From contig JADDTR010000004.1 of NCBI GenBank assembly GCA_015345905.1, positions 496,001 through 560,000 on the forward strand: 64,000 nucleotides of DNA, read 5' to 3'. The stretch comes from Aotearoamyces nothofagi. Taxonomy: Eukaryota > Ascomycota > Leotiomycetes > Leotiales > Tympanidaceae. The translations under genes were made by a program, and so were the position numbers. The notes beneath the pieces are model-generated. The model saw only the letters and a list, made by a program, of their open reading frames with translations. It did no database searches and had not been told where the DNA came from. This document shows positions 17,600-38,796 of this stretch, in pieces (the stretch's first letter is position 1; each line of letters starts with the position of its first letter).

Positions 17600-20396
17600 T
17601 CAAGAGTACCATTCGTCGTCGACAAAGTCATTAGGGTTGCCATTAGTCCCATTCCCATTTCCATTCCCATATCCATTTTCACTCCCACTCCCACTCCCAC
17701 TCCCATTCCCCGGCACATAGAACCCCGCTCCCATCCCATTCGCATTCCCTTCCCCATTCGACCCGCCCCCACCCCCTTCCAGTCCCCAGTTATAAAACCC
17801 CATCGCCAGACTCGCCTGGTCCTGCAACCACCAATCCTGGCTTTCCATCAATGCATCCGCTCCCCCTGACAGCACACCGGGAGAGACTTTTCGCGAAAGC
17901 GTCCCCGGAGGGGCTTGTTGTTGTTGTTGTGGCAGCGGCACCCGTGACACCAGAGGGGCCATGCCGTAGTCATGGCGCTGCGCGTATGGATTTGCCATAT
18001 GCGCGACGCTTTCGGGTGGTAAGCTTATTGGCCCATTCAGTCTCGGTGATGGGAGAGGAGAAGCCGTGCTCGGGATATGTGGACCCAAATGGACAGTCTT
18101 CGGAGGCATGTTTGATATTATGCCTTGGCCAGTTATAGGCACCCTACCAATATTGTTCTGATGTGGGACTTGCTGTTGATAGTAGCCTTGCAGGTTCCAT
18201 ATTTGGGTATTCTGTGGAGGCGGAGTATTGGATGGCTGTATTGAGACAGCATCACTCTTTGGCGGCGATGGTACATCTGCAGTACTGAAAAGGCCATACT
18301 TTGCGTCTGTACGGCCCAGAACCGTCGAAGCTTCTTCTGGCAAGCCTATTTTCCACTTTCGAGCGAGCACACTCAAAATGCTCAAAGTCCGTCTTGCGCA
18401 TAGCCAGTCTTCGGCAATTTCTTCGAGATGCTTTACACCGTGTATGATATCTCTCTTTGCTGTGTTCTCCGGCAAGTTGAGAAGATGGATGGTGCAGGCA
18501 GAATGAACAATATAGACTGCAATGTTACAGATCTGTCGTAGTCCATATGTACGCTTGTAAAGGCGCATAAGCTTGGATATATGGGAAGCTGCTTGCGAGC
18601 AAAGCTTTCGAGGGGATACGTGAGAAGGTAATGGAGATGTTGCAGGCTTATACTTCAGGAACGGTCGGAATAGATGTATGTACAGGAGATGGAAGAACAT
18701 GCTGCTTGTTATTAGTGAAATTCAAAACTAGGCGGTTATGCGCGACTTACTGCATAAGAAGGACATTTGGCAGTTGCCCTTCTTTCGGCTCGAATTCCTT
18801 CGGAAGATCCTTGCGCCATGCCTCCAGCCGTGTATGCAACTCGCTCAACTTCTTCAATTCGGCCGTCTTTCCCATAGACCTCTCGAGGACCTGGGGCTGG
18901 TAAAAGAATATCAAAAGATCGCTGCTGATCTCGCAGAGACTCGAGATCTGTAAAGCGACAGCCCTCGTTCTCGAGGGTTGAAAGTGCATCTGACCGATGC
19001 CATTATCCGTATACGGCGACCAGATATCGCTATCCTCGTCCGGGAACACATCATACTTCGGGACGGTAATATTAGAAGCAGGAATTTGAGGAAGCCGCCC
19101 AAGATAATTCGACCAGCACTTGTCGAACAAGAAGCAGCCCCAGAATGTGATCCTGCGTGCATCAATCTCTTGTTCGCCCATGGTCTCGTTATTTGCAGTC
19201 ATCCCGCCCGAATCGAGGTTCAGACCCATATCTTGCGCCATTCGGAAACTCATACCACTGTACACCCACCCCTTTGCTTCCCGTCCACACCCAGCTTCTC
19301 TTACCGACATCAGCGCTAGAGCCTGGACAGTGGTCAGTCTTGGTTTCTCATACTCGTCATTCTCAACAATCAGTCGCTTTGCCTCGGCGAAGAACACGTC
19401 GCCTTTCGTGGTAGGGTTGTTGGGGTCGGCACACGCCGCAGGAGAACTGGTGAAGTGACACCCCAAAGCCAGCATGGCATTAACAAGTAGAGAGGAGCAA
19501 TATATCCTTCCCTTGGGCGCCACAGGCGGTTTGCCTAAGAGGAACTCCCGGTAAAAGAGGCTCTTCGACAGAGTCGTAAAGTAAGGATAGTGCCAAGTGA
19601 AATACATGTTGATCAGATGCACAATGAGCTCTCTGTCTTTGGTGACGGTTGTCCAACTTAGCAATGGTTCATCTTGTTGCTGTAAGGTATCCAAGTTAGG
19701 ACCGTCATCTTCGTCGGTTGGTGTCAGGTATATCAGATTCGAGGTCCCCCCGATAAATCTCATTGAGCCATTCTCTAATCTGAGCTCGCCCATTTTCCCC
19801 GATAATTCCGTCTCAAACGTTGGGACCTCTGTTGTATATGCGCCGCTAATCAGATCATCGTCGTCTTCTTCGTCCTCGAGCCCCTGATCCTGCTTTATAA
19901 TGCTTTCTGCAACATCATCCAGACTCTCACAGGTCCGGATCCGCCTGACCAAAGCTGGAACATCGTCCTCTGTTGCGTTCAAGATCGCCTGAATAAGCGT
20001 CTGCAGTGTCGAATTGCGAGTCTTCAAGCTGTCGAATTTCTCTTTGTAGACGCCCTTCCTTCGGTGGTCGCTACTGGGATCGTAGACGCATTCTGTTGAT
20101 CGATGTGTCAGTAATTGGATCATGACACAACAAGGCATTTGGAGGCCGCTACCTGTCTTGTATACGCTGGAGCACGCAGCGCACGACGGCGTGTTTCCGT
20201 CACATTTGGATTTCCGCCGTCGGCAGGCTATACATGCTGTGCTTACGCACCGTCGTTTTATTGTCGCGGTCTCACCACTCGTCCTGGCCTTCTTTTTTGA
20301 AGTCTTGACACCAACATTTCCATCGGTGAGGGACGCACTCGTCTCTCTAGAGATAACAGGCTCCTTGTATTTCTCAGATATGGGGTGGCCTGCCAT
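17600..20396 (-). CDS. nirA: Zn2Cys6 transcription activator of the NirA/NIT4 nitrate-assimilation type
   Basis: Three exons on the minus strand: 20396-20153, 20092-18751, 18701-17600; 895 residues. The zinc cluster is C55-x2-C58-x6-C65-x6-C72-x2-C75-x7-C83; the first intron splits it between Thr81 and Glu82. After it come a linker (HRRKGVYKEKFDSLKTRN), a coiled dimerisation helix (LQTLIQAILNATEDDVPAL) and the fungal-specific TF domain with signatures shared with Aspergillus NirA (MSVREAGCGREAKGWVYSG, ITFWGCFLFDKCWSNYLGR, HVSPRKLCSQAASHISKL). The C-terminal 230 residues are Gln/Pro/Gly/Asn-rich, a likely activation region, ending DDEWYS. NirA turns on nitrate and nitrite reductase and transporter genes with AreA; none of these targets lies in this window. 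Paralogues of NirA exist in some fungi, so orthology is probable, not certain. Confidence 0.88.
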
Positions 20397-20693: not shown

Positions 20694-20835
20694 ACGGCCT
20701 CTGCGGCAGCAGCCCCCCGGGAGGGCCAGCGGAGCGTCACTACTGATACAATCTCAGAAGGGGTGAAATGGCACAGATCGCATTAGTAGGCACGCTCCGC
20801 TGGCCCTCCCGGGGGGCTGCTGCCGCAGAGGCCGT
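20694..20835. mobile_element. 142-bp palindromic MITE-like element, copy 1
   Basis: Two perfectly inverted 44-bp arms (20694-20737 and 20792-20835) flank a 54-bp centre. The arms are very GC-rich and start ACGGCCTCTGCGGCAG. CCAG occurs immediately outside both ends (20690-20693 and 20836-20839), a possible 4-bp target-site duplication. There is no coding capacity. The same arms recur at 38658-38796. It lies between the nirA promoter and a decayed kinase fragment. Classification as a non-autonomous DNA element is inference; a structural hairpin of another origin is possible. Confidence 0.65.
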
Positions 20836-21372
20836 CCAGGCACTCACAAGTTTCGAGGATCCAGGTAAGATGGATTCTCGCGCTTATAGTTGCGGTCTAT
20901 CAAAGTCTATATTTCTATCAAATATATATAACTATATTCCAGGCCTTCGACGCCAGTTACAACAAATACAATCCGCACATCTTCTATCCCAAGTGGACAA
21001 AACATATATCGATAGCAATAAGCTTCGCGGGCCGTTCCGTTGCGGACTACAAGTCCCACCTCTTACTACTTACTTGCTATTCAGTGCACCCTAGGACAGC
21101 CAGGAAACTTATGCTGGTAGATCCATTTGCCAGTACCCTGAGGTAAGTACTGTACCATTCAATAACTTTCATTAATGAGTGTTGAGTGTTGCACCAACAC
21201 CCTCCACCCCCTGGTTCCTTGCTGAGGGCTATGCCAACGTCCCATTTTCGATATCCCAGCAGCCATCACCAGGCTATGCTGTCTGGTGTTTGTAGCATTT
21301 TACCAGCTCTGAACATTCGTGCCTCGCTATGTGGGGCTCGCTCTCACACGCTTACTAGCACGTGCACTCCTC

Positions 21373-22089
21373 TCATCCGTTCTCTGACGGCACCACCTGC
21401 GCTCCCCCAGAAGCCAAGGGTTCTTCCAGAAGCTCCGAGGGCTCAGCTCTCGATTCCGGCGTCCACCTGACCATTTTGCGGACGAGGTCGAGAAGCTCCT
21501 TGTTAGCAGCATCGAGATCCTTCTCGGCATCTTCCCAAGACGCTGAGATTACTGGATTCGGGCATTTCCCATTGCCTGCTGGATGCATATTAGATTGGCG
21601 AGTGCACCTGCCAGGAAGCAAGAGCTTGCCTTGGCTATCAAAGTAGACGGAGCTGCACTCGCTTCGCTGGAGGAGTTCGAGGGGGGGAGGTCCTAAAAGA
21701 CCAGCCATGCTGGCGAGGTGGAATCGGTTCGCGTACTTGCCCGTCTCGGGGTCAAGCCCACCGAACATATGTCTGTTCTCAAACAGGTCCCAGATCTAGA
21801 AGCTTTCGTTAATCTCACTGCGATAGACCATGCTGTTGGCCACGCGCGGGAGACCTCGCACCACAACTCCGACGTTCTATACATCTGCAGCATAGCCCCA
21901 TGGCATCTCTAGAATGACTTCGGGTGCCCGGTAAGGATTGGGCTGTATATCATGGCAGTACTCAACCTGCCAATTTTGGGCGAGAGAGATGTCACACAGG
22001 ATCGGCCGACCAGACCTGGCTGGGATACCGAAGTTTACGCTCTTGTAAAGATTATAGCCGTCGACGTTTTTGTAGATGCTTGATGCCAC
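21373..22089 (-). pseudogene. Decayed fragment of an SRPK-like protein kinase (C-lobe only)
   Basis: Reading on the minus strand, the translation shows kinase C-lobe blocks: IPARSGRPILCDISLAQNW (a degenerate DFG region), IQPNPYRAPEVILEMPWGYA, NVGVVV, IWDLFENRHMFGGLDPETG, HLASMAGLLGPPPLELL and KMVRWTPESRAEPSELL. These blocks and their order are typical of fungal SRPK-related kinases. The N-lobe and catalytic loop are missing; the MDR gene lies directly upstream. A TAG at 21877-21879 replaces the Trp of the conserved DVWNVG motif. A 66-nt GT..TAG intron seems to be kept between VGVV and IWDLF, so this is a genomic, not retroposed, copy. The LLPGRC region is also degenerate. Confidence 0.75.
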
Positions 22090-22181
22090 GATTTCTCTCC
22101 TATCTAGCTTCCTAGGAAGTGGGCTGGAAGGAATAGTATTTTCTAAGATTTATATCTATATGATTCAAAAGACCCATCTAT

Positions 22182-23402
22182 CTAATCGATCTTGATAACA
22201 AGCTTTCCAGTATGTTTTTGCGCATACATATACGCGTACGCCCTGTGTCACGTCAGTATCAGTATCGTCTCTCCGCAGCAGGGACTTAGAGGGGGGCGTG
22301 GACGTACTCTTTCAGCTCCTCGAGCTTGAAGACCTTGGCGTCGACGACGGGCTTGATGTTGTTGGCCTCGATGGCACGGTTCTTGAGGACGCGGTATTAG
22401 CACAGCTCGAGCAGGCCGAGCAGGCAAAAGGAAGCAGGCTTACCATTTCTTCAAACTGCTCTCTACTTCCGACCAAGAGTCCGCGGACGGTGCACATGTT
22501 ACTCAGCGCTTCCAAGAAGCTTGGCTGCTCCTGTTGAGGGCCGCCGACAAAACCGATGATGGAGATGACACCGCCGATCTTGATGGCCTTCAGCGACTGG
22601 CCGATCGTGCTGGCGCCACCGACTTCAAGCACTTGATCTACACCTTCCTGGCCCGGCGTCAGCTTCTTGGCCTCCTCGCCCCAGTTCTTCACTTCTTTGT
22701 AGTTGATCACGTGGTCTGCGCCTAGCTTCTTCAGGTACTCGGCTTTGGCGGCCGATGAGGTTGTGGCGATGACGACTGCGCCGGCAGCCTTGGCGAATTG
22801 GACGGCAAAGGTCGAGACGCCGCCGGTGCCTTGGGTCAGGACGTAGTCTCCTGGCTTGAGCGCCTTGAGGCCGTAGAGGCCATTCCAGGCTGTGAGGGCT
22901 GCGCAGGACAGGGTGGAGCCTTCGAGCCAGTTCAGGTTCTTTGGTAGAGATACGAGACCGTTCTCATTGAAGACGCCGTGGCTCCTGAGGGTGCCGTCAA
23001 CGACACCTCCAAGGCCGGATTGGAGAGTCACCAGGTTCAGGTCTCCGCCAATGTGTGTCTGGTTGAAGAGAGTGGCCACGCGGTCCCCGGCTCTGAAACG
23101 GGTGACTTTGGAGCCGACGGCGATGACCTCGCCGGCTCCGTCAGAGCCTGGGACAACGCCATCGGATTGTGGGAAGGGATATTGGCCCTATATTTGGCGG
23201 TCAGCTGGGCAGAGGCAGCAGAGAGGAGAGGATTTACAAGAGTAATGACTAGATCACGGAAGTTTAGGGATGCTGCATGGAATTTGACGAGGACCTCGTT
23301 GTCCGAGACAGATGGGAGGGGGTAGTTTGGCTTGTAGACAAGACTGTCGAAGCCGTTTTGGCCCTGGACAACCCAGGCTTTGGTGCTCTGAGGGATAGAC
23401 AT
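22182..23402 (-). CDS. Zinc-type alcohol dehydrogenase-like (MDR superfamily) oxidoreductase
   Basis: Four exons on the minus strand: 23402-23238, 23187-22444, 22381-22308, 22242-22182; 347 residues, the usual MDR length. N-terminal GroES-like domain: VLVKFHAASLNFRDLVITL, then PGSDGAGEVIAVGSKVTRF and GDRVATLF. Rossmann domain: LTQGTGGVSTFAVQFAKAAGA and ATTSSAAKAEYLKKLGADHVINY. The end HTGKLVIKID is typical of fungal YogA/quinone-oxidoreductase-like members. The structural-zinc Cys cluster and catalytic Cys/His ligands of classical ADH are not evident, so it probably works without zinc using NADP(H), in the cytosol; the substrate is unknown. Confidence 0.92.
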
Positions 23403-25523
23403 TTTTATTGATGAATGATGAAGCTTGGCAGAAAAGGGAGGTTTGATGGAATCGTGAAGAAGTATAGGATAAAGAATCTACTTGATGTTGGCAGATGTGA
23501 AAATATATATATATTTTACCTTCCGTCCTCTCGGTATCAATATCAATGGGGAAGCTAATCGGTCGGCAATGACGATAGCTTAGAAACCAAGGGGCCGAAA
23601 TTATGACGTTAGTGACCCTCATAGGGCTAGTATGGAGCCAAAATCCACAGCCGGTACGTCTCGGTAGCAATGGCGATGAGGCCTTGGCGAGAATCCCCAC
23701 AAGCAAAGTCAATTCCTGACTAAGTGGGCGTCTGTTTGTGCATTGTTGATGCGTATTTGGGCCACCGCGGTTCTTATTATTGGTCCTGGCTCCTAGAGCC
23801 TGCTGGTTTCTCCATGATGGATTATCAATCAAGTCACATGACTAAGTGTTTTTTCCTTCCATCTGCGGGAGATCTGACAGGATCTAGACCAGCTGCCGGT
23901 CATTGTGGAGAGCCGCTGTGAGAAGCGAGCGGAACCCTCTGGCCCATGCAATATGATTCTTGATGTCTGAGCAGTTGAAAGAGTTGAAAGAACGGCGAAG
24001 CGACATCAACTGTCTTTGGCGGTTATGTACGCTGTTTCTTACATGTCTGTTGAGCGACAGGTATCTCGTGACGAGGCCGTTTTCACGAAGCGTGGCATAA
24101 GGATCCTAGGGGTGGAATCTGGTGATGGAAAGATTAGATAAGAAATAGTGACGTCCCATACACACAGGCATTTTGACGTGCTGCTTTCCTATATAGCGAT
24201 GCCTGTAATAACGATACCTGTACAGCGATACCTATACGGCGGTAACTATAGAGCGGTGAGGTATATATCTTCCTCTCTTCAAGGATATCCAATCCCAGTC
24301 CACATCCTGCCGAACAAAGATCCGTCTACACCACATAGAACGGACAAGACTCCATTTGGCCGAAACTAACTGCATTAAGCATCATGTCTGTGACTTCATA
24401 GTGTTTGTCACCTCCATCAAAACAAGTAAACGGCGTCGTAAGAATCCTTGGAGCAAGATTTCTTGTGAGTAGCCGCTCAGAAAGGGCCTTCGGCCGAGAT
24501 ACCAGGCCGGATGACAGAACACCAAGAGCAAAGCACAAATGTTCAAGTGGCTCCTTGAAACTCGCAGGTGCAGCAGGGACTACTGTAGCATGCCGGCCCA
24601 GCTTCCCGAAAGATTCAGTTGGCGACAATGAAGGTTGCATTCCGTGTGGCCGCCCAGGCGCAGCTGGCCGAATCCCAGGCGGCCTCTCGATATTCCATGC
24701 GTTTGGATGCGGCACAAGAAACTTCTGTGCGTCTCCTTAATCCTGCAACCGGACTTGTCGGGATGGCTATGATCGTCACGGCTCACAAGTCATGATTGCC
24801 CAAGTAATTTGGCGTTTTTAGTAAACAGCCACCAGGGAAAGAGAGCAAACTCCCGTCAATATCTTTCCGCGTGTCTCCAAGGGGAAGCAAAATAATGCCA
24901 CAACGGGACGTGCAAATGATCAGTTGTGGCAGTTTGGCACAAAGTTGTGGGCTGCGGTGTTTTTGTAGTCAATGTGCAGCTTGCGTGCTCAAGGCTTGAG
25001 TTACAGGTTGGTAGGAATACCACTTGAGGTGGCTGCCGATACTCCTGCCTGTAGCATTACTACTGACTGACCGATACTGGCCCTCGGATTGCAACAAGAT
25101 ATATCGATACTGAACGAGACAATAAAACCAGGCTCTTCAATCAATAGGAATATAGCAGCTGCCTCTGAAAGTACTGAGATAAGTAGATTGTTCTCAAGAG
25201 GCCTAGTATCTTGAAATATCAATATTAAGCCCAAATTGCCGGAGAACCTTCGCTCATCTGACTCCTTTAGCTATACCAACAATATTCTGCTCATCGAAAG
25301 CTTCCCCGTTCAATTTCATCTTCGTCTGGAGCTTGATTTCGAGAGTAGTTGTACCCAATGACATGCTGGATTGATATCTCTCGAGTCGGTCCTGTCTAAA
25401 CCCCCCCGCTAGGCAATCTGATAAGTGTATATAAATCCAGCATATACCGAGTTATCATACACTCAACTCCTAGAGTCCCTCTAGACTTCCAAATACCCCC
25501 AGCGTACCGCTCTAGAGAATCAA

Positions 25524-25525
<2 letters not shown>

Positions 25526-25555
<30 letters not shown>
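25526..25555. repeat. (AT)15 microsatellite
   Basis: Uninterrupted alternating A/T over 30 bp. Confidence 0.95.
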
Positions 25556-25559
<4 letters not shown>

Positions 25560-26691
25560 CTAATCATGCGTCTGTCTCCCTGATTGCCGCAGTAGTTCGT
25601 TTCCCTCTTTCTTCAAGAATCCCCTAGCTCCTATTTACTTACTATACTATACTATATATACGCAGAACAAGACAAAACCAGCCTCCATTCCTCCTCCCTC
25701 TCCTCCCCAGCCGCTGCAGCGATGCACACTCGCCCCATCCCTATCTATCTATCCATCACACCGACTCCCAGCCAGCCCAGACCCCCCGTCTCAGCCCAGG
25801 CGGAGGATGGCCTTCTCCCCCGTCGTCGCCACCGCGCTCTCTCGGGCCACACACACACACGCGCGCGCGCGTCCAGATCAGCGATCTGTTCCCTTCCCCT
25901 CCCCCCCTCGCCCCCTTTTCCTCAGCTTCCTCTGCAGCGGATCTCGGCGGGGTTTCTCTCTCTCTCTCTATATGTAGCGCTGGAAGAGGCGCTCCGGAGG
26001 AGAGAGCGCTTCGCCCCCGTCTTCATTCGAATGGATCGATTTAGTCGTGGCCTGCGGCTGCGTGCGTGCGCGCGCGGGTACGAGATGCGGTCTTGGGGTA
26101 GGTGAGGTGAGCTGGACTGGACTCGGGGGGGGAGAGACGGAGATAGATTAGATTAGATAGATAGATATATGTATGTATTATTATTATTATGATATACAGG
26201 ACAGGATAGCACTTGTACCAAAACATATATATATATATACAGGTAAAGAGGTTTCCATTGCAACGTATACACCGCAGTACAATATTACACAACCCCACCC
26301 TCCAAAAAAAGGGCCAAGAGTTGCTCCTCCAACCGATAGACCCTTGAGAGGGCTAGCTATAGCGAGCTTCGCAGCATGCTGGAGCCGGAAGACGGATCTT
26401 CTGAGCTGGGCGTGTTTTGCAGCATGCGTTCGTTCCCAAGTCGAAGAAGAAGAAGCTGCTGCTGCTCGACAGGACCTTCTGCAAGTAGTGCTCGGTCGAT
26501 CGATTGGATCGGATCGGGACCGTCGGCCTTTCGGATCCGAGGCGCGAGAGCTGTGGAGAGGAGCTTCGGTGCAGCATACGTCGGGAGTTTGTCCAACAAG
26601 TTGCACAAAGGGGCAAGATATCGAATGGATGGATGGATCGATTCTTGACGGAAGACAAAAGAGAGTGATCGGCGGCGGCTTCCCGATCCCC

Positions 26692-26713
26692 AAAAAAAAA
26701 AAAAAAAAAAAAA
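26692..26713. repeat. A22 homopolymer
   Basis: Twenty-two consecutive A on the plus strand. No upstream reverse-transcriptase or SINE-like body is recognisable, so this is not called a retroposon tail. Confidence 0.9.
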
Positions 26714-28583
26714 TTATATTCTTTCTCCCTCTCACATGGTGGAACTCTCGTCCAGAGATAGCTGGGGGGCTTTGCAATTTGATCTATCTCTTCTGCTCTT
26801 GACATCTGCTTCTGGTTTTACGTCCTTTGGGGGCTCCTTTCCTTTGTACGCGTCCGGAGTGTATTGAAGCCTTCTCAGTCGACCAGTTTCCCACGTGTCA
26901 CCTCCTGTACGTTAGTATATATAGAATCTTTCGAGGATCTGAAGCTGGAGGTCTAAAAAGTCTTCAGTAACACTTATTAACGTCGCTGGACCCTCGCCGT
27001 CCATGACCACCGGCGCAATTGTAAATCAGCCCTATATCCCACAGTTTGAAGAGGTCGGGGCCTAGTGGGACGCGGCGCTTCCTGGTCTGTGGCGAGGCTG
27101 GAGTAGGCGGACGCGACGGGTATCCGTGAGCACCCACCGAGGCCGTGCACTTTACCCGGCATCCCTGAAAGTGTGAAGAATAAACACTGTTCTGCCTCTC
27201 CGAATAGTGGATTTCTTTCTCATCTTATCTTCGCAGTCACATAACGAGTACTAGAAGCCATTTTTGATTGCACTCTTTTAGATATAGAGCCAAAGAAAAT
27301 ATTTGCAAATTTGGTGTCCTATAATACTTTTTCATCCCTTCTTAACCGCTCCATCCTGTCTTTCGTGGGTGTCAGTCATGAACGCGTCGGATCGGAGGAT
27401 CAACAGTACCCTTTCAAGAGTGCAAGCTGCGTTCAGCTTTCTGACGGCATGATACCAGGCAAAGAGAATAGATACTGGTAAGAATCGGATATCCCAAATA
27501 TCGCGCTTGTATAGCCGAGGCAATATCGAAGCATAAGATTAGAAATAGATGCCTCGATTCAAAAATCAGAAGACAAAGGGGCATTTCCAATGCCAAGATG
27601 ACGACGTGGTCTTCGTATATGCACGCTGCAACTGTAACCTACTGCCAGTATCTACTACGAAAGGTGCCTGAGTAATGACGGTGCCATCGACATGGCAAGC
27701 TGACAGCACCTGCCTCTACGGAATGATGGGATCCTTGGAGGACGGAGTATAGCAGATGACGGATGCCGATGAAATGCTCCTGTTGACTTGCAAGCCTGCA
27801 TCCTATGCATCCCTCGATTGCGCATCCTCCCGCCTACTACACTACGCTCTGCAGGGATAAGTGTTCATGCGGCGTTGGAGAACGGCCGCTTTCTGCAGGT
27901 GAAATGCCGTGCCGCACATACTCAGAGCTGGCCATCAGAGCTGCCCATCCAGGGTCGGTTGCAGCACACGGGGTATCAGATGCTGACGAAGTCCTGCTTA
28001 GAGGGCGAGATGGCACCACAGCGCACCCGGAAGGCCGCAAGAGTCGCTTGCTGATCTGTGACGACCAAGGATTGTGCCAAGTCCACGAATCAGCGGGCCG
28101 CACCGGGCCAGCTGGCAAGATGTTGGCCAGCCTGGATATCGGACCGTCTCTTTGTGTGGCGCGGGGTCGTCGGCAGACGTGGTAGGCAGGAAAGGACACG
28201 GCGAGGTCAAGGACGAAGGACGAAGGACGAAGGACGCGGGACGAGGGTGCCCATCAGTCAGTATCGGCGAAGAGACCCTTTCTGCAGTGCAGGCTGCGTC
28301 AGATTGCGGAGGAAATGGAGAGTGCGAGGTTGCGAGGTTGCGAGGCTGCAGCAGAGCAGGGCAGGACACAGCACGGATATACGCTCTAGTTTCCACCAAC
28401 GGCAAGGCAGGACGGGACGGGACGCCCTCTCACGTTATACTCCGTCCGCACCACCAAGCCAAACGAAGCAGGACGGATGCGAGATGGCCGGCACCTTCTT
28501 GCGGTGCTATCGGGGCGGCGAGGCCGGACGTGGAAGCTGGGGAAGGGCAGGCTTGGCACGGATGACTTGACCGAGGCGCATTG

Positions 28584-28740
28584 GAAGGGGAGGAAGGATG
28601 GAAGGATGGAAAGAAGGATGGAAGGAAGAAAGAAAGAGAGGACTTGCTGGCCATCAGACCGATCATGGATCATACCGAGCTCAGGCTTGGCCGAGAGGAG
28701 AGGAGAGGAGAGAGGAGAGAGGAGAGAGAGGAGAGGTCTG
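28584..28740. repeat. Purine-only low-complexity tract (GGAAGGAT- and GAGAGGA-like units)
   Basis: Two neighbouring blocks of imperfect short repeats, almost all purine on the plus strand, separated by about 50 bp of ordinary sequence. Such strands can form triplex or other non-B structures; whether they do here is not shown. Confidence 0.8.
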
Positions 28741-28812
28741 GTAGGAAGGACAAGCGAGGCAGTGGAAGAGAGTCGGCAGTGCAGGAGACATGGGCTGTAG
28801 GATATATAGTGT

Positions 28813-28983
28813 GTAGACATGTAGACATGTAGACATGCAGACATGTAGACATGCAGACATGTAGACATGCAGACATGTAGACATGCAGACATGTAGACAT
28901 GCAGACATGTAGACATGCAGACATGTAGACATGTAGACATGCAGACATGTAGACATGCAGACATGTAGACATGCAGACATGTA
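28813..28983. repeat. 8-bp minisatellite GYAGACAT, about 21 units
   Basis: Units GTAGACAT and GCAGACAT mostly alternate, giving a 16-bp higher-order period broken in at least two places. The same 12-mer, GTAGGATATATA, borders the array at 28797-28808 and 28981-28992. The minus-strand frame across it codes for repetitive Met-Ser-Thr-Cys-Leu-His-Val peptides; this is a by-product of the repeat. Confidence 0.95.
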
Positions 28984-29100
28984 GGATATATAATATATAG
29001 ACATATCGACATATCGACATATCGACGTGCGCATGTATTCCATCCTACTTCAACAAGGCATGCGCAGAGTTGTTTTGGGCATGACGACGGACTCCTCGCA

Positions 29101-29126
29101 GAGAGAGAGAGAGAGAGAGAGAGAGA
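29101..29126. repeat. (GA)13 microsatellite
   Basis: Twenty-six bp of uninterrupted GA. Confidence 0.95.
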
Positions 29127-29446
29127 CGAAGCACGCACATGACTCGCAACTCGTGATGTACCAGTACGTACTGTACCATATATCTACAGGCTTGGCGTAA
29201 TGCGCAAGTCCAAGGCGAGGCTCCTGGGGCAAGGTACAGGGCAGTGCAGTGCAGGACAGGACAGGGCAGAACAGGACAGGACATCCGGTAGGTAGGTATC
29301 TGCCGTTACTGGGGGCTGTCGGGACCTGCTGTGGGTACCCGAGGTGGGTGCTGGAGCCGGGGGTGGCTGTACGGGGAGGCAGCAGGTAAGATAGGCTCCT
29401 AGGCTAGGTATGTACAGTACTGGCAGTGCAGGACAGTGTACAGTGT

Positions 29447-29546
29447 ATGTAGGTGTAGGTACAGGTGTAGGTGTAGGTGCAGGTGCAGTAGACGTAGATG
29501 TAGACGGAGGTGTAGATGTAGATGTAGGTGTAGGTGCAGGTGCAGT
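29447..29546. repeat. Imperfect 6-bp repeat (GTAGGT/GTAGAT/GCAGGT)
   Basis: About 16 degenerate hexamers in tandem. Confidence 0.85.
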
Positions 29547-29657
29547 ACTGTGCCAGTGGGCGGTGCCAGAGGGTAGCTGCTGCTGCCTTGTCCACTACTA
29601 CCCTGGGTGGACTGGTACAGCACGGGATAGTGGGTGGGTGTAGGTACGGTGAGTGTG

Positions 29658-30072
29658 CCTACAGCGACTGAGCCTACAGTGACTGAGCCTACAGCGACTG
29701 AGTCTACAGCGACTGAGCCTACAGCGACTGAGCCTACAGCGACTGAGCCTACAGCGACTGAGCCTACAGCGACTGAGCCTACAGCGACTGAGCCTGCACC
29801 GACTGTACCGTGGGCGGGTGCCGGCACTCACGCACTGTACAAGTACAAGTACGTACCTGTACCGACCTGTGCAGTAGGCGTGCAGCGGTGCTCCGNCAGC
29901 GACTGAGCCTACAGCGACTGAGCCTACAGCGACTGAGCCTACAGCGACTGAGCCTACAGCGACTGAGCCTACAGCGACTGAGCCTACAGCGACTGAGCCT
30001 ACAGCGACTGAGCCTACAGCGACTGAGCCTACAGCGACTGAGCCTACAGCGACTGAGCCTACAGCGACTGAG
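29658..30072. repeat. 15-bp minisatellite CCTACAGCGACTGAG in two arrays around an undetermined base
   Basis: Array A holds nine units (29658-29792). Array B holds one partial and eleven full units (29897-30072). A 103-bp unique stretch follows each array identically (29793-29895 and 30073-30175), and the only N of the window (29896) sits exactly at the end of the first of these. Because 15 is a multiple of three, several frames stay open on both strands (repeats such as VAVGS); these are not genes. Confidence 0.92.
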
Positions 30073-30432
30073 CCTGCACCGACTGTACCGTGGGCGGGTG
30101 CCGGCACTCACGCACTGTACAAGTACAAGTACGTACCTGTACCGACCTGTGCAGTAGGCGTGCAGCGGTGCTCCGTACCTGGATCTTCAGGCTCAGCGCC
30201 CTCTTCAGTCGGTGTCCAGTGCAGTAGGCGGCGGCACCTGAATCTTCAGGCGCAGCGCCCTCCTCGTCCTCGTCCGGCCTAGCCTTCCCGCGCGCTGCTG
30301 TGTCGCTGGCGTGTTGGCGGACGAAATAGGCAGCCCGAGCCGCCGCCGGTGGGGACCTACGGCGCTTGCGAGTCACGGGCCTGGCCGAGGCTGCCTCCCG
30401 TTACTTGCTTGCCAGGCTTCCCTCTGTGCAGC

Positions 30433-30510
30433 CACTCAGTTCAGTCAGTCAGTCAGGGCAGTCACTCACTCACTCACTCACTCAGTCACTCACCCAGCCA
30501 CTCACTCAGT
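30433..30510. repeat. 4-bp low-complexity tract (CAGT/CACT)
   Basis: Runs of CAGT and CACT tetranucleotides with a few interruptions. Confidence 0.85.
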
Positions 30511-31115
30511 ACACTTCCCTAGCCTGGGCACGCCAGTTGGACCGTCTGTCCGTCGGTCGGCCGGTCGGCGGTCAGGAGCCTGCGCATCTCACTCCCACGG
30601 CGCAAATCTCCACACGCCCACCGGCTCCACGCTCCGCGCTCCACAACTTTCCCTTTTCCTGCGCCGCCCCTCGGCCTGCTGGCGGCTGGCTGTCCTCCAA
30701 GATGGAGACAACGCCGTGGCCGCCAAGCACCCGAGCACCCAAGGCACCCAGGCACGTGCCGCCAAGCAAGGGCCGTCGAGCGCGAGAGCGACGCTGGCCC
30801 CGCCCGCGCCGCTCCCAACGCGACTCGCCCCCCAGGCTTCGCCCCAGGTCTGGCTGTCTGCCCTGTCTGCCATGTCTGGCCGTCTGGCCGTCTGGCCGTC
30901 TGGCCCCCAGGAATCCTGGGTGGTCCGAGCCTCGCGGCCGACGCAGACGAGAAGGGAAGCTTCGTGACCGATCCCATCCCGACTGCTGAGCAAGGTCCTG
31001 CTGGCGGACGTGCGCCGTGTGCGATACAGCTCCCTTCCAGCGTGCGGTATGCTCCCACGGCCACCCACTAGCCCTGGGCGGAGGCGTGCCAGAACCGCGA
31101 CCGCCCGCCGGCCTG

Positions 31116-31155
31116 GACAGAACAGAACAGAACAGAACAGAACAGGACAGAACAG
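31116..31155. repeat. 5-bp tandem repeat (AGAAC)
   Basis: About eight units of AGAAC with one GGAC variant. Confidence 0.9.
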
Positions 31156-32352
31156 ACGCCGTTAGACCCCGAGACGAACGCTCGCCGTCGCTGGAGGCAT
31201 CGTGGCCCTCGTGATGGCGAGCCTCGTGATGGCGAGCCTCGTGCCTCGTGCCTCGTGGGATCCCGTGGGAACTCGCGCTGGCCGAAGTTTATCCTCGTGC
31301 TGGCCGAGGTTTATCCTTTGGTCTGGCGCTTCCGTTCTCCGGAGAAGGTCTGGCCGAGGCCCGCCGCGGAGAGCCCCCGCCGTAGCGAGTAGCCCACCTG
31401 GCAGGCCGCGGTGTCTGCCTGCCTGTCTGTCAGTCTGTCAGTCAGTCAGCCAGCCAGCCAGCCAACCGTCAGTGCCCACTCGGCCGCTGTGCCCGCTGTC
31501 CGCTGTCCGCTGCCCGCCGCCCGCTGCCACAGCGCCCTGAGGCCCTGGAGAACTGCTGCACTGCTGCACCGCTACCGCGACCACCACTCCCGCTACCGCT
31601 ACCGCTACTGCTACCGCTGTCTCTTCCGACTTCCAGTTAGGTGCCTCCCTAGTTACCACTCACTCCACCACCGCCCACCACCCACCGCCCACCACCCACC
31701 GCGCCCACCCACCCACCACCATACCACAACTGCAACCTCCGCTACCTCCATCCATTCTTTGGCCTGGTCAGAGAACCACCCTCCCTCCTCATGCCTCCTC
31801 CTCGTCCTGCCCTACCTCTACAGACCTACCCGTGCTCCTCCTCCATGCCTCCCCTTCCCGGCTCATACCTATACCTCCTGTGCTCCTCCAAACCCACCCT
31901 TCCTCTACAATAATATGCAGGCATCGAGTCTGGAATCCCAGCTCTGCTAACCTGCTCTGTCCTATCGCACTGTACATCTCCATGCGAACCCCGCCATCTG
32001 ACTTCGCTTGCCCTTGCTGTGGTGGCGTGGTCCTGGCACGTCGTCTTCGTCTGTTCCTCCTTCTGCTCGTGCTATAGCTGCAGTTGCAGGACGGACCACA
32101 GGGCTTGCAGACCAACAGACCAATACCCGCCCATACTGCGTACCTTGGAGGGCGACTCCTCCAGCTCGACTGGGTGCAGATAAAGTCCGCGCCGTGCAGC
32201 ACTTTCTCGAGGCGCCATCTCGCAACCTAAGCATCATATTCGAGCGCCTTGTGTTTGGAGCTCTTCGTCAATCCGGCGAGATCACACCTTGACAGACGCT
32301 CTACACCCCTCTCATCACGCCGGATAAGCCCGCTGGGCCCGGTGGAGTTGAA

Positions 32353-35300
32353 ATGCTTTCTAACCCTCTTCACCGGTTCTCCTCGTATCATGCTCTGCCT
32401 GTTACCGACATGCTACCCAACGGCCACATTCCCTCCATCCAGATGAACGGGGGCAACGGGCTAGGTACTCTGGCCCACGGCTCTCAGTACGCTCTGCAGC
32501 AACTCCAGAGGCATATTGATGTCCACCAGAACTCGCAGCCTGGCAGAGGTCCCAGTTCGAAACATCGCCAGCATCAGTACGATGGCATGCCGGCAGGAGG
32601 GATACCTGGGAGAGGATCTGGAGCGGCTAGGGCCTCTGCACAGGGCCCTGTTCGTAGAAGAATCAGTAGGGCCTGCGATCAGTGCAACCAGCTGAGGACC
32701 AAGTGTGACGGTCAGAGCCCATGCGCCCACTGTGTCGGTATGTGCCCGGACCCAGCGATTACGCAGGTATACTAACGGCTTCTAGAGTTTAACTTGGGCT
32801 GCGAATATGTGCGAGAGCGAAAGAAGCGTGGGAAAGCATCCCGGAAGGACCTTGCACAGCAAGCTGCTGCTGCTGCTGCTTCGAATGGACTAAAGTCGCC
32901 GGCAGAACATTCATCGGATGGAAGATCGCCCACCGAATCGCGAATGGACAATGGTTCCTCCAGTGGATCAGCAAACGATAACGACTTCCACCGGCCAGAA
33001 TCCAGATCAATGGGCCCGAATGATAGAATTGGATTACAAAAGCCTACGGGCGGCAATGTGCACACAACACTGAAAACAAACCGTACACTGAGTCTCGGGA
33101 ATGCTATAGAGCGTCCACAGCAGCATCAGTCTCTTATGGACCAACAAGATGACGCGATGGGCCAGGGACAAGTCGACAGCCCTACGCATATGGGGCTGGA
33201 TGGCTACGGGACCTTGCATGGATACCCCAGACCCGTGAATGGCCATTTACTGAGCAATAATGGACAGCACTACGGCTCACCTAACAATTTACCCGGATAT
33301 CCAGATATGCCATATGTCATACAGAGCCCGCAAAATCCCAATTACCCGGGCAATGCTCAGTCGCCAGCATTTAGGCTAGGTGACAGCCCAATGTCAGTCT
33401 TCTCCATGGAGACTCCACCCGTTCCATCACCGGATTGGACCTCCATGGTGCCCCCGGTCAACCAATACCACGTGAACAAGCAGACTCAGTTTCAATTTCA
33501 ATCTCAATTTCAATCCCAATCTCAGTCTCCACAGCTGAGATATCCAGTACTCCAGCCACTTATTCCCCACCTTGGTAACATTATACCACTTCCTTTGGCA
33601 TGTGATCTCCTCGATCTCTATTTTGCTAGCTCGTCGTCTGCTCAGATGCATCCCATGTCACCTTATGTCCTTGGATACTGCTTCAGAAAACGGTCATTCC
33701 TCCATCCCACCAAGCCTCGGCATTGCAGTTCAGCGCTACTATCAAGCATGTTATGGGTTGCGGCTCAGACTAGCAATGCCGCCTTCTTGACAGCGCCGCC
33801 TTCTGCCAGAGGTCGAATCTGTCAACGGCTACTTGAACTTACTGTGAGTCTTCTGAGACCGCTCATCCATGGCCCTCCCAGTGGTGGAGAATCACCACCA
33901 AACTTTGCGGATACCGTCATCAATGGCGTTGCATTGGGAGGGTTTGGTGTATCGATGCCTGGGGCCGTAGGAGCAGACGGCATGCATGGAGAGAGTGGAG
34001 GATTCGGAGCTGCAGGTGTCTTGGACGACGTCGTAACCTACATCCACTTGGCAACAGTCATTTCTGCGAGCGAGTATAAGAGTGCTAGTCTTCGTTGGTG
34101 GAATGCCGCCTGGTCACTCGCGAGAGAGTTGAAGCTAGGACGAGAGCTGCCTCCTAGTCCAACCACCCAAGCCAATGACGCCGATGTCGACGCTGATGGC
34201 GAGGCCGATGATGATATGGATATGCCACATCACCCAAGCACTGCACATGGTCGCATTACTGAGGAGGAGAGGGAGGAACGACGAAGGATTTGGTGGCTTG
34301 TCTACACCGTTGATCGGCATCTATCACTCTGCTACAATAAGCCACTGTTCCTTTTAGACGTCGAGTGCGATGGTCTGCTACAGCCAATGGACGACACGTT
34401 ATGGCAGAGGGGCGATGACTACTCCGGTGATTCAAGCATTCATATTACTTCCCCGAATGGTACTGCTCGGATTAGAAGGAGAGGACCTAACTTTGAGTGT
34501 ACTGGCCATAGTATATTCGGGTATTTCTTACCCTTGATGACCATCCTCGGCGAGATAGTAGATCTCAATCATGCCAAAAACCACCCACGTTTCGGGGTCG
34601 CTTTTCGATCAGCACAAGAGTGGGATGACCACACTAATGAGATTACCTTACAGCTCGAGGCCTATGAGCGGAGCTTGAAGGAATTTGAACAACGTCATTT
34701 ATCAATCAACGAAGGTAAAGGTGATAGTAACGACACCAGTATAATGGATGGTATGATATCAAACAACCAGAACGACCGAACCTCTCCATCGAACAATTCT
34801 ACCAATACCTCAACGTCGCGCATGACCACTGAACTAGATATTCAAACCCGGATTGTTGTTGCTTATGGTACTCATGTTATGCATGTGCTACATATTCTTC
34901 TTGCAGGGAAGTGGGATCCGATAACCCTACTCGACGACAACGATCTTTGGATCTCGTCACAGAGTTTTATCACAGCTACGGGGCACGCTGTCTCTGCTTC
35001 TGAATCAATAGAAGGTATACTTCAATACGATCCTGGCTTGGAATTTATGCCATTCTTTTTCGGTGTTTATCTTTTACAGGGAAGTTTCCTGCTGTTGTTG
35101 ATTGCAGATAAACTCCAGAGCGAAGCAAGCCCGAGTGTTGTCAAGGCGTGCGAGACGATTGTTAGAGCGCACGAGGCTTGTGTGGTTACATTGAATACGG
35201 AGTATCAGGTAGGTGACTCGACTCGATTCCTGCATGTATATTCCTAACAAGACCACAGCGAAACTTCCGTAAGGTCATGCGCTCTGCATTAGCTCAGGTC

Positions 35301-35402
35301 CATGGTAGGGTGCCAGAGGACTTTGGCGAGCAGCAGCTACGACGGCGGGATGTCCTTTCGCTTTATCGATGGACTGGGGATGGAACTGGTTTGGCGCTGT
35401 AA
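32353..35402 (+). CDS. xlnR: XlnR/XYR1-type Zn2Cys6 activator of xylanolytic and cellulolytic genes
   Basis: Three exons: 32353-32737, 32786-35208, 35259-35402; 983 residues, close to family length. The start [16 protein letters not shown] matches the family N-terminus. The zinc cluster is C108-x2-C111-x6-C118-x5-C124-x2-C127-x6-C134 in the highly characteristic context [20 protein letters not shown], followed by [16 protein letters not shown]; the first intron lies inside the cluster. Then follow an Ala run, a Gln/Phe/Ser-rich tract ([14 protein letters not shown]), the fungal TF middle domain ([21 protein letters not shown]) and the C-terminal regulatory end [19 protein letters not shown]...[13 protein letters not shown]. 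XlnR binds GGCTAAA-type sites and responds to xylose. Upstream is an unusually long gene-poor region; downstream is a convergent LRR-kinase gene. Confidence 0.97.
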
Positions 35403-35984
35403 ATATTTATGATTGCTTCTAGTATATTGGATGGAGGATTGCTTGTATAGAAAACTTGGGGGGCGTTTGGCAAAAGGGGGATAGTCTAGGTTCGGGGCTC
35501 GGCTTGGTGGAGGATCTAGGACTTATGGAAGAACGAACGATTTGACGCCATATAAGCGCCATGTAACTCTGAATATCTGATCTGAGCGTCTTCTCGCTTT
35601 TGTGAATTGCTTTTGCTGATGGCTGACAGGAGGAACGAGCAGAAGAGGTGATGCCTGTCATCTATGGCAAGCTCTTGTCTGATCAGGCATGACCGTGGCG
35701 TCTCAAGGAGGCCAGACAACGTTTCACATCAAAAGGGAGCGTCTTCCACCTGTCTCCCATGATCGTTTCCCGATCAACGCATATTCAATGGGTACAAATT
35801 CATTCTGTCTCTAATCTCTCCCTCCTAATCCTACTCCCATTCCTTTTCCCTAACAGTCTGTCTCCTCTCTGTCCCGATATCATACGTCATGTCATGCCAG
35901 ACGTCCGTCTTGATCCGTATCATCTCATGCCATCATGCCAGACGTCGTCGACGTCTACGAAATCATATCGTGTCTCCTCGACGT

Positions 35985-37415
35985 CTACAAGTCCCTCAGA
36001 ACCTCTTCGATCGCGGCAAAGAGCGGCCTCTCCACGACGACCCCGTCCACACAGCTAGAATGCAAGGCGCCCAGGCTCTCCCACACCTCCCCGGCCCTCT
36101 CGGCCTCGGCCACCAAGCCCATCATGTCCTCCACCAGGTGGCCAAACGCGGCAACCTCGATGCGCTCGATCAGATGGGCGCTCTCGTGCTCCCGCGTGTA
36201 GACGGTGGCGGCGCCGAAGTCGCCCAGCAGGGCGTGGCCGGCGTCGTCGATCAGGATGTTGTGCGCGTACAGGTCGCCGTGGGCGATGCCGCCCCCGTGC
36301 AGGTGGGCCGCGGCGCTGGCGACGGCCTTCAGCACGGCCACGGCCTTGGAGAGGGCGATGACGGTGCCGGCGGGGAAGGAGTCCCGCGTGCACGAGTCGA
36401 GGGTCGGGGGCAGGCCGAGGCTCGCGTAGCGCGGCGGCACGAGCTGCATGACGAGGCCGCGCCCGGTGGGGTGGCCGCGGATGCTGCCGAGGGGGCCGAT
36501 CAGGTGCGGGTGGCGGCCGGCGCGCATGGTGGCCGCCATCTCGTCGGCGGGCGAGCCGTCGGAGGTCACGTGGCCCCTGAACAGCTTGACCGCCACGTGC
36601 GCGCCGTCCGGGCCGTGGTGCGGGTGCGGCGGCGCCGGCCTCCAGATGCCGCGCGAGATGACGCCCGACGCGCCCTCGCCGAGCAGCTCGCCGACCTCGA
36701 GATCGGACCAGGAGATGGAGCCCAGGGCCGGGCCGGCAGCGGCAGCGGCAGCGGCAGCGGCACCGGGAGAAGCAGCAGCAGCCGCCCCTCCTCCTCCTCC
36801 TCCTCCTGCCTCCAGCCCGGGCCGGTTGGCGCACGGGTTGCCGGCGAAGGAGAGAAAGGCCAGCGAGGGCAGGGCGAAGAGCCAGTCGGGCAGCGACGTC
36901 AGCCGGTTGGCCGACAGCCGCAGCAGGGCCAGCCGCGTGCACCGGGCCATGGAGTCCGGCAGGCGCGTCAGCCGGTTACCGGCCAGCATGCACTTCTGCA
37001 GGCGGCGCGCGTCGCCGATGCTCTCGGGCAGGGCGGCGATGCAGTTGTCGGTGAGGATGAGCCAGCGCAGGCGCGGCGGCAGGGCGGCCTCGGGCACGTG
37101 GCGCATGGCGTTGGCCCGGAAGGCCACCAGCTCCAGGCGCGGGCAGGCGGCCAGGGCGGCGGGGAAGCGGGCGAAGCCGCAGCCGGAGAAGAAGGCGACG
37201 CGCAGCCGGCCGAAGCGGTGCATGCAGGCCGGCAGCGCGCCGAGCCCCGGGTTGCCCGACAGGTCCAGCACCTCGAGGCTGCCCGCCAGCGCGAGGATCT
37301 CCGCCGGGAAGGACTCGAGCCCGCTGTTGCAGAGCTTGAGGTGCGTCGTCGGCGGGGACGCCGAGGCGTAGGCGCCGGCGAGGAGGGCGGAGAGGGTCTG
37401 GGGCGCGGTGTGCAT
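35985..37415 (-). CDS. Leucine-rich-repeat protein with C-terminal protein kinase domain (GC-rich)
   Basis: Single exon, 476 residues from ATG 37413-37415 (a longer frame upstream runs into leader-like repeats). Residues about 23-200 are leucine-rich repeats of the LxxLxLxxNxLxxLP type (LEVLDLSGNPGLGALP, LRWLILTDNCIAALPESIG, LALLRLSANRLTSLPDWLF). About 203-230 is a Gly/Ala-rich linker. The kinase domain spans about 235-476: Gly loop GEGASGV, VAVK (Lys277), HGDLYAHN (Asp381, Asn386) and DFG (399-401). The catalytic loop has HGD instead of HRD and Tyr after Leu. This LRR-then-kinase order with HGDLYAHN I associate with bacterial LRR-kinases and sporadic fungal relatives. Intronless and far more GC-rich than neighbouring genes. 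Substrate unknown; no signal peptide or membrane segment, so likely cytosolic. Confidence 0.85.
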   Translation of the reverse strand: MHTAPQTLSALLAGAYASASPPTTHLKLCNSGLESFPAEILALAGSLEVLDLSGNPGLGALPACMHRFGRLRVAFFSGCGFARFPAALAACPRLELVAFRANAMRHVPEAALPPRLRWLILTDNCIAALPESIGDARRLQKCMLAGNRLTRLPDSMARCTRLALLRLSANRLTSLPDWLFALPSLAFLSFAGNPCANRPGLEAGGGGGGGAAAAASPGAAAAAAAAAGPALGSISWSDLEVGELLGEGASGVISRGIWRPAPPHPHHGPDGAHVAVKLFRGHVTSDGSPADEMAATMRAGRHPHLIGPLGSIRGHPTGRGLVMQLVPPRYASLGLPPTLDSCTRDSFPAGTVIALSKAVAVLKAVASAAAHLHGGGIAHGDLYAHNILIDDAGHALLGDFGAATVYTREHESAHLIERIEVAAFGHLVEDMMGLVAEAERAGEVWESLGALHSSCVDGVVVERPLFAAIEEVLRDL

Positions 37416-37424
37416 TCTGGCGAG

Positions 37425-37452
37425 GTTGAGGGTTGAGGGTTGAGGGTTGAGG
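37425..37452. repeat. 7-bp tandem repeat TTGAGGG in the LRR-kinase leader
   Basis: About four units of GGTTGAG just upstream of the start codon on the kinase's strand. It resembles, but is not, a TTAGGG telomere repeat. Confidence 0.85.
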
Positions 37453-38090
37453 ATGAAGGTGTTGACGGTGTTGGCGCTGTTGAGGCTGTTGAGGGATTGA
37501 AGAGGCTTGACGGGTAGGTATATAAAGAGGTCGAAGACGCAGCCGACGAGACCGGACGTATTCTCAAGATGCCCCCAAAAAAAAAAAAGCAAAAAAAGAG
37601 AACGAAGCGCGCCTCCCACACACACACATGTACATATATATATATATATATTTTATCTCTCTTATCCGAGCCCGCAGGCGAAACCCTCCCTATCAGATTA
37701 CACGGGCAGAAGCACGGGGCACGGGCCTTCATCATCTCATCTCATCTCATCTCACTCACCCCTTAGCGGCCCGCCGGGCCCCCCGTAGCGCGGCGCCGAT
37801 AAGGGAAACGAAAAAAGGAAAGGAGAAGAAGAAGAAGAAAGAAGAAGAAAGAAAAAGGGCAAAAACGCGCGACCGCCCCGTGTCTCGTTCCCCGTTCTGA
37901 GTCGGGTGCGGTTGCGGGCGTTTTTTTTCCTTCTTTTGATCTATTCAGATACTGGGTCGGGCCGCGCCGCGCCGCGCGCTTGTGGCTGTGGTTTTGCGCT
38001 TTTGCGGCTCTCTGATAAATGGGGGGGGGAGAGGGAGAGGGGCTGGGGCATGACGAGCGGCTCTCTGATAAGGGGGGGCTGAGCGGGCAG

Positions 38091-38312
38091 AGGGACGGAT
38101 CACGGGCGGAAGGACTGCGTGGGATGGGATCGGTTGGAGATCTGGCAGGCGGGAGGGGAGATCGGGGACCCGAAAGACATAAGAGGGGAGAACGGGCAGA
38201 GGGATGGGATCACGGGCGGAAGGCCTGCGTGGGATGGGATCGGTTGGAGATCTGGCAGGCGGGAGGGGAGATCGGGGACCCGAAAGACATAGGAGGGGAG
38301 AACGGGCAGAGG
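38091..38312. repeat. 110-bp tandem duplication
   Basis: Two adjacent copies with period 110 bp (CACGGGCGGA at 38101 and 38211), differing by only a few substitutions, hence recent. No coding sense. Confidence 0.92.
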
Positions 38313-38421
38313 AACAAAAACCCCAGACAACAGGAACGGAGGTGGGAGAGAGAGAGAGAGAGGTGTATGTATATATTGAGGCAGGCGTGTTGGCTCCTCT
38401 GGCTCGGGGGGGGTTTTTTTT

Positions 38422-38423
<2 letters not shown>

Positions 38424-38453
<30 letters not shown>
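38424..38453. repeat. (CTG)n trinucleotide repeat, about ten units
   Basis: Uninterrupted GCT/CTG repeat right after a T9 run. Confidence 0.95.
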
Positions 38454-38657
38454 AGAGCGGTCGTGGAAGTTGTTGGGGGGGAGGGAGGGTTCTTGGTTGG
38501 CTGGGTATTTTGTGAGATGTATATATATAGTATAGTATATATAGGTTTATAGGTCTATCTTTTTGTCTTTTTGTCTTTTTGCTGATGCGCATGCAAGCTT
38601 CGGATTCTAAATCTTTGCACTCCCTAACTCCTCTCTCCTCCACCCCTCCCATTCAGG

Positions 38658-38796
38658 ACGGCCTCTGCGGCAGCAGCCCCCCGGGAGGGCCAGCGGAGCG
38701 TCACGTCACCCATGCGATCGGTGCCCCCTTCTAAGAGCGACTCGCACGAGTGACGCTCCGCTGGCCCTCCCGGGGGGCTGCTGCCGCAGAGGCCGT
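38658..38796. mobile_element. 139-bp palindromic MITE-like element, copy 2
   Basis: The same 44-bp arms as the element at 20694-20835, here at 38658-38701 and 38753-38796. In this copy the perfect pairing reaches 47 bp because the next bases (CAC/GTG) also pair. The 51-bp centre is only partly alignable with copy 1, and only when reversed (shared blocks such as AGAAGGGG and GATCGCAT), so the two copies lie in opposite orientations. No clear target-site duplication is visible here. It sits about 195 bp downstream of the terpene synthase stop codon. Confidence 0.65.

What the first reader, a model, noticed from the sequence alone, without database searches (positions are those of the whole stretch)
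20694..38796. Two palindromic elements with identical 44-bp arms but diverged centres
At 20694-20835 and 38658-38796 the same GC-rich 44-bp arm occurs four times without a single difference, as perfect inverted pairs. The 51-54-bp centres are only partly alignable, and then in reverse orientation. Arms kept identical while centres drift is not what neutral decay after transposition gives; it points to gene conversion within the hairpin, to selection on the arms (transposase or nucleic-acid binding, or a transcribed hairpin), or to arms being traded between elements. The elements carry no coding sequence and I recognise no described family.
Basis: partly seen in the sequence, partly recalled or inferred. 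Interest (0 to 1): 0.75.

Follow-up and report, generated by a model that had tools for sequence, protein, structure and literature searches.

The report
Dispersed 43-base hairpin repeat in fungus
The repeated arm of the two palindromes is a short GC-rich hairpin sequence scattered in dozens of near-identical copies between the genes of a fungus; it resembles the tiny mobile hairpins known from mitochondria and bacteria, and it stays uniform while the DNA copied along with it drifts.

Summary
Confirmed: both palindromes exist as stated, with four identical 44-bp arms. But the repeat unit is the arm, not the palindrome. The genome (25.5 Mb; a Leotiomycete by one protein search) holds at least 61 copies at 44 sites, 31 of them single. 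The E1/E2 core occurs eight times, four outside the window. Copies are sharply bounded, mostly intergenic and show no target duplication. One 4-bp hairpin has two pairs with two-sided changes. In nine pairs sharing flanks, arms differ at 2 of 366 positions, flanks at 34 of 350: 'arms kept, neighbours drift' holds for the family. Nearby copies share the 3' flank and mostly break at the arm's 5' edge. Best reading: a GC-cluster- or REP-like mobile hairpin in nuclear DNA, kept uniform by ectopic conversion. Mobility and conversion are inferred; selection is the main rival. A second, unrelated GC-rich repeat lies beside seven copies. Two tandem arm pairs are probably assembly artefacts.

The parts
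20694..20737 (+). E1 left arm, one copy of the dispersed 43-44 bp hairpin repeat (subfamily A, long loop)
20738..20791 (+). E1 centre, 54 bp, imperfect inner stem; homologous to reversed E2 centre and to the 3' flank of the arm in L003
20792..20835 (-). E1 right arm, inverted copy of the repeat
38658..38701 (+). E2 left arm, copy of the repeat (identity with E1 left arm continues to 38704)
38702..38752 (-). E2 centre, 51 bp, homologous to the E1 centre in opposite orientation
38753..38796 (-). E2 right arm, inverted copy of the repeat
18747..20396 (-). Neighbouring ORF, Zn(2)-Cys(6) transcription factor (Fungal_trans, Zn_clus); E1 lies 298 bp upstream of its start. Context, not part of the element
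35985..37625 (-). Neighbouring ORF with leucine-rich repeats and a kinase domain; E2 lies about 1 kb upstream. Context, not part of the element

Best explanation
The arm is a very short non-coding mobile element: about 43 bp, GC-rich, able to form a small hairpin, dispersed through intergenic nuclear DNA in at least 61 copies. Most sites hold a single copy. The two window elements are inverted pairs of copies around a shared, diverging centre. Shown: copy number, sharp ends, two main subfamilies, two-sided changes in one hairpin, mostly intergenic placement, local clustering, slower divergence than co-duplicated flanks, and one-sided sharing of flanks between nearby copies. Inferred: when single-stranded the repeat folds and stalls or breaks replication; repair then (i) copies the arm, sometimes with its 3' flank, to nearby places in either orientation with one end fixed at the arm's 5' edge, and (ii) overwrites old arms from other copies, which keeps arms uniform while centres drift.
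For: At least 61 copies at 44 sites, 31 sites with one copy. Backward-read control patterns gave no match; in the looser, 12 against 60. Arms 2 of 366 differences against flanks 34 of 350 in nine pairs, p 2.7e-9; without microsatellite-like flanks 1 of 246 against 19 of 210, p 3e-6. Hairpin CYGC-GGCA-GCRG: 12 cells changed on both sides against 4.0 in shuffles, and its two varying pairs are the two strongest by mutual information. Nearby copies share the 3' flank and in five local pairs, and in E1/E2/L003, the similarity stops at the 5' edge. 2 of 64 arm flanks look coding against 22% at random places in the same loci. 12 neighbour gaps under 20 kb against 1.3 expected.
Against: No target duplication: 4 of 50 copies have a direct repeat of 6 bp or more at their edges, 1.5 expected, with no constant offset. 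No empty site or strain variation could be examined. No mobilising enzyme was linked to the arms. The two-sided changes may be only two events, and two of the five measures (pairs with a two-sided change, 55 of 500 shuffles as high; pair types, 500 of 500) do not exceed shuffles. A single arm folded alone is not more stable than shuffles. Three inverted pairs without alignable flanks differ in their arms by 2/40, 1/43 and 3/40. Two of the nine pairs share a copy, so they are not fully independent.
Confidence: 0.5

Rival explanations
1. Selected site: each arm is a functional binding site or a structured RNA segment, and purifying selection alone keeps it constant while flanks drift.
For: Nearly every position is constrained; mostly intergenic; one hairpin keeps its pairing through changes.
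Against: Selection would have to hold about 40 contiguous bases at 44 unrelated sites. The variants A, B, long and short loop are all tolerated, yet paired arms of E1, E2, C14, C34, C11 and C19:227280/227476 carry the same variant.
Confidence: 0.25
2. Terminal repeats of a miniature foldback DNA transposon: arms are inverted ends, single arms are remnants.
For: E1 and E2 are arm-centre-arm palindromes and L003 keeps one arm and the centre.
Against: No target duplication. Inverted pairs occur in both polarities. Single arms are complete and in the majority of sites. Stretches between arms at C4:625452-626831 and C11:788237-789545 show no long transposase-like frame, judged by eye.
Confidence: 0.12
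3. Transcribed long hairpins at E1 and E2 feed small-RNA silencing, and pairing in the hairpin selects for identical arms.
For: Both fold into near-perfect stems.
Against: Only some copies are paired; single arms are as uniform. Rfam hits are generic long hairpins, all below the curated score. No expression data held.
Confidence: 0.06
4. Assembly or library artefact at hairpins.
For: Five of six single-N places seen lie at direct duplications, and two tandem arm pairs (C3:5254/5470, C19:231168/231365) are among them.
Against: E1 and E2 hold no N, have unrelated outer flanks, and the arm occurs in many unique contexts.
Confidence: 0.04

Closest known systems
Yeast mitochondrial GC clusters (GC42) and other mitochondrial repetitive or double-hairpin elements (PMC4478555, PMC2800124; passages seen)
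   Same: About 40 bp, GC-rich, hairpin-forming, many identical dispersed copies, constraint on structure, units found next to or merged with other units.
   Different: Here the copies lie on nuclear contigs, no short direct repeat flanks them, and mobility between strains could not be shown.
Bacterial REP elements and REPIN-type inverted dimers (PMC3733652, passages; PMC3116915, listing only)
   Same: Short extragenic palindromic units, single or as inverted dimers in both polarities with spacers of tens of bases; a CGTC lies at one end of the arm.
   Different: Fungal nuclear genome; no Y1 transposase found; the unit is an imperfect hairpin of about 43 bp; the CGTC may be chance.
Foldback elements and MITEs
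   Same: E1 and E2 are inverted repeats around a short non-coding centre.
   Different: No target duplication; most sites have a single complete arm; both polarities occur.

Membership tests
Mitochondrial GC clusters / RHE | GC-rich unit of about 30-60 bp that can form hairpins, in many near-identical copies | tested here: met
   support for one 4-bp hairpin only, other stems unsupported
Mitochondrial GC clusters / RHE | Located in mitochondrial DNA | tested here: not met
   The 61 copies lie on 20 contigs; those whose length an answer gave are 144 kb or longer. No COX1 match, so the mtDNA seems absent from the assembly and a copy there is not excluded
Mitochondrial GC clusters / RHE | Flanked by a short direct repeat (AG or ACT in yeast) | tested here: not met
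   50 copies
Mitochondrial GC clusters / RHE | Presence/absence between strains | not testable with these tools
   no relative genome held
REP / REPIN | Short extragenic palindromic unit, single and as inverted dimers | tested here: met
REP / REPIN | GTAG or CGTC tag at one end | tested here: inconclusive
   GCGTC at the 3' edge in most copies; no independent test that it is the same tag
REP / REPIN | RAYT / Y1 tyrosine transposase in the genome (GTAG type) | tested here: not met
Foldback / MITE | Target-site duplication | tested here: not met
   none at E1 or E2 by eye
Foldback / MITE | Related autonomous transposon with the same ends | tested here: inconclusive
   No long transposase-like frame seen between the arms at C4 and C11; the whole genome was not searched for DDE transposases
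microRNA or other Rfam RNA family | Match at the curated score | tested here: not met
   window; 7 loci
Small-RNA hairpin locus | Mapped small RNAs | not testable with these tools
   no reads held

The most novel reading that the evidence does not exclude
A nuclear counterpart of mitochondrial GC clusters and bacterial REPs: a 43-bp self-spreading hairpin without a protein of its own in a fungal nuclear genome. It spreads locally through break repair with one end fixed at its 5' edge and is homogenised genome-wide by hairpin-triggered gene conversion; an unrelated 40-bp GC-rich repeat in the same genome may behave alike.
Probability: 0.35. Interest if true: 0.75.

Novelty: new variant of a known kind. 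Interest (0 to 1): 0.55.

Why it matters
Hairpin elements of about 40 bp without any protein are known from mitochondria and bacteria, and how they spread and stay uniform is unsettled. Dozens of copies in a compact nuclear genome, some in pairs whose flanks give a yardstick of divergence, would make conversion against selection directly testable. They would also be natural markers of how nuclear replication forks and breaks behave at hairpins.

Tried and rejected
Rfam: nothing at the curated score. No tRNA in the window. One exact pattern in prokaryote genomes and one in viral contigs: 0; plasmid BLAST of E1: none. Mitochondrial origin: no COX1 match in the assembly, so untestable. Y1 transposase: none. 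Helitron Rep: two places, both with stops inside, not linked to the arms. First impressions dropped: compensatory changes in longer stems (searches show none); L022 as a fourth copy of the centre (p 0.55); the C3:5254/5470 and C19:231168/231365 tandem pairs (joined by a single N). The search with the L003 centre found only itself although E1 is homologous, so it was insensitive; the pattern found E1 and L003 and missed E2. A coding threshold set too high was redone. Two regular expressions matched nothing; one search was redone, and the aim was met.

Rows left out: A2 holds 56 of the 61 copies (left out: truncated C3:779, two copies whose core and left flank equal another row, two N-joined duplicates); one search used 58 rows, one search used 50 and one search used 51 copies. 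Not in the Fisher count: E1-E2, E1 and E2 within themselves, and the three pairs without alignable flanks.

Full report
1. Observation. The two palindromes are present as described. E1 has arms 20694-20737 and 20792-20835, E2 has arms 38658-38701 and 38753-38796, all four identical over 44 bp. Folded as RNA, both are far more stable than shuffles. The centres are homologous only in opposite orientation.

2. The arm is the repeat. A search of the window's own genome (25.5 Mb, 55 contigs) with E1 returned many places holding a single arm. Patterns and a second query, and reading the fetched stretches, raised the number to at least 61 copies. Merged within 2.5 kb they make 44 sites, 31 of them with one copy (list). 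Without two N-joined duplicates the number is 59. These are lower bounds, since the tool scores only its best candidates. Backward-read control patterns gave no match, and 12 against 60 for the looser pattern. Two main subfamilies exist: A (CTCTGCGGCAGCAGC) and B (CTCCGCGGCAGCGGC), with loop variants. The E1/E2 core of 41 bp is present in 8 identical copies, four of them outside the window. The organism is most likely a Leotiomycete: for a 479-aa channel protein the best named hits are Claussenomyces sp. (79% identity) and Pseudogymnoascus (79-80%).

3. Anatomy. The unit is sharply bounded, about CGGCC...GAGCGTC. It is often preceded by CTGG (C, T, G, G in 33, 25, 35 and 36 of 50 copies) and then A or T (42 of 50). 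A subset of subfamily A shares a further short stretch upstream. No target duplication was found. In alignment A2 (56 of 61 copies) the small hairpin CYGC-GGCA-GCRG has two neighbouring pairs with two-sided changes, 12 such cells against 4.0 in shuffles. These are the two strongest column pairs by mutual information (58 rows). Two alternative longer stems show no such support. Against this reading: the number of pairs with two-sided changes (2 against 0.9; 55 of 500 shuffles as high) and of pair types do not exceed shuffles, and a single arm folded alone is not unusually stable. The changes could be two events (the subfamily split and one local pair), and repair of imperfect palindromes could also create them.

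4. Surroundings. By codon usage trained on ten long window ORFs, 2 of 64 arm flanks look coding, against 22% at random places in the same loci (32 copies in loci of 2,900 bases or more). E1 lies about 300 bp upstream of a Zn(2)-Cys(6) transcription-factor ORF, E2 about 1 kb upstream of an LRR/kinase ORF. Sites cluster: 12 neighbour gaps are below 20 kb against 1.3 expected under uniform placement, which ignores uneven gene spacing. A second GC-rich dispersed repeat of about 40 bp (GGGGGATTCTCCCCCAAACCCCCTGTCCTCGCTGCGCTCG; 38 match places, 28 copies extracted) lies within about 250 bp of seven arm copies, by comparing the coordinates.

5. Arms against flanks. In nine pairs that share flanking DNA, arms differ at 2 of 366 positions and flanks at 34 of 350 (p 2.7e-9). 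Without three pairs with microsatellite-like flanks it is 1 of 246 against 19 of 210 (p 3e-6). Gaps were not counted; the E1-L003 arms differ by a 2-base loop indel. Two of the nine pairs share one copy. Three inverted pairs without alignable flanks differ in their arms by 2/40, 1/43 and 3/40.

6. One-sided sharing. Nearby copies share the arm and its 3' flank, and in five local pairs the similarity stops at the arm's 5' edge: C19:227280/227476, C19:92038/92906, C14:62271/62388, C34:123089/123175 and C3:4184/5254; the same holds for E1 with L003 and E2. Three local pairs share both sides (C19:91926/92038, C11:788237/789494, C4:645454/645644). Three local pairs share neither side beyond a few bases (C4:625452/626784, C11:799391/799706, C18:417767/417899). 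No local pair was seen to share the 5' side alone. This points to events with one end fixed at the 5' edge, such as repair synthesis or transposition. It rests on few cases.

7. Mechanism. The best-supported story is a tiny mobile hairpin that is copied through breakage and repair and homogenised by ectopic conversion. Copy number, uniformity and one-sided flanks are shown; mobility, breakage and conversion are inferred. Selection on the copies is the main rival. No mobilising protein was identified: no Y1 transposase match, two Helitron Rep places with stops inside, and 13 reverse-transcriptase places, two of them in open frames over 700 aa. None was linked to the arms, and DDE transposases were not searched.

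8. Known kinds. It works most like mitochondrial GC clusters (GC42: 42 bp, identical copies, structural constraint, mergers; passages of PMC4478555; RHE: passages of PMC2800124) and like bacterial REPs with their inverted dimers (passages of PMC3733652). By the tests made it is a member of neither: nuclear contigs, no flanking direct repeat, no Y1 transposase. Eight paper searches listed, by title and start of abstract, no nuclear fungal family of this kind; the last of them listed nothing. The library is partial, and no repeat database was searched.

9. Artefacts. Five of the six single-N places seen lie at direct duplications, four of them exact tandem ones, so two tandem arm pairs are probably assembly errors. 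E1 and E2 contain no N.

Noticed in passing
L088-L107, L060, L063, L071 (module 2): A second dispersed GC-rich repeat of about 40 bp, unrelated in sequence to the arm; 38 match places, 28 extracted and nearly identical, often as inverted pairs.
   Followed up: partly
window 29896; L071:322; L013:1647; L014:2898; L056:8746: Single-N places at direct duplications, four of them exact tandem duplications of about 180-300 bp: probably unmerged contig-end overlaps.
   Followed up: partly
L073 (C4:644920-645860): Four arm copies within 0.7 kb, three of a distinct subfamily with a longer second hairpin-like stretch.
   Followed up: partly
G000:C43:95398-95880 and G000:C31:4503-4985: Reverse-transcriptase matches in long open frames (744 and 1255 aa) in a genome whose other matches often hold stops.
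   Followed up: no
window 28764-29040, 29439-30205 and 38097-38312: Tandem arrays with 8-, 12- and 15-bp spacing and a 106-bp tandem duplication at 98% identity.
   Followed up: no
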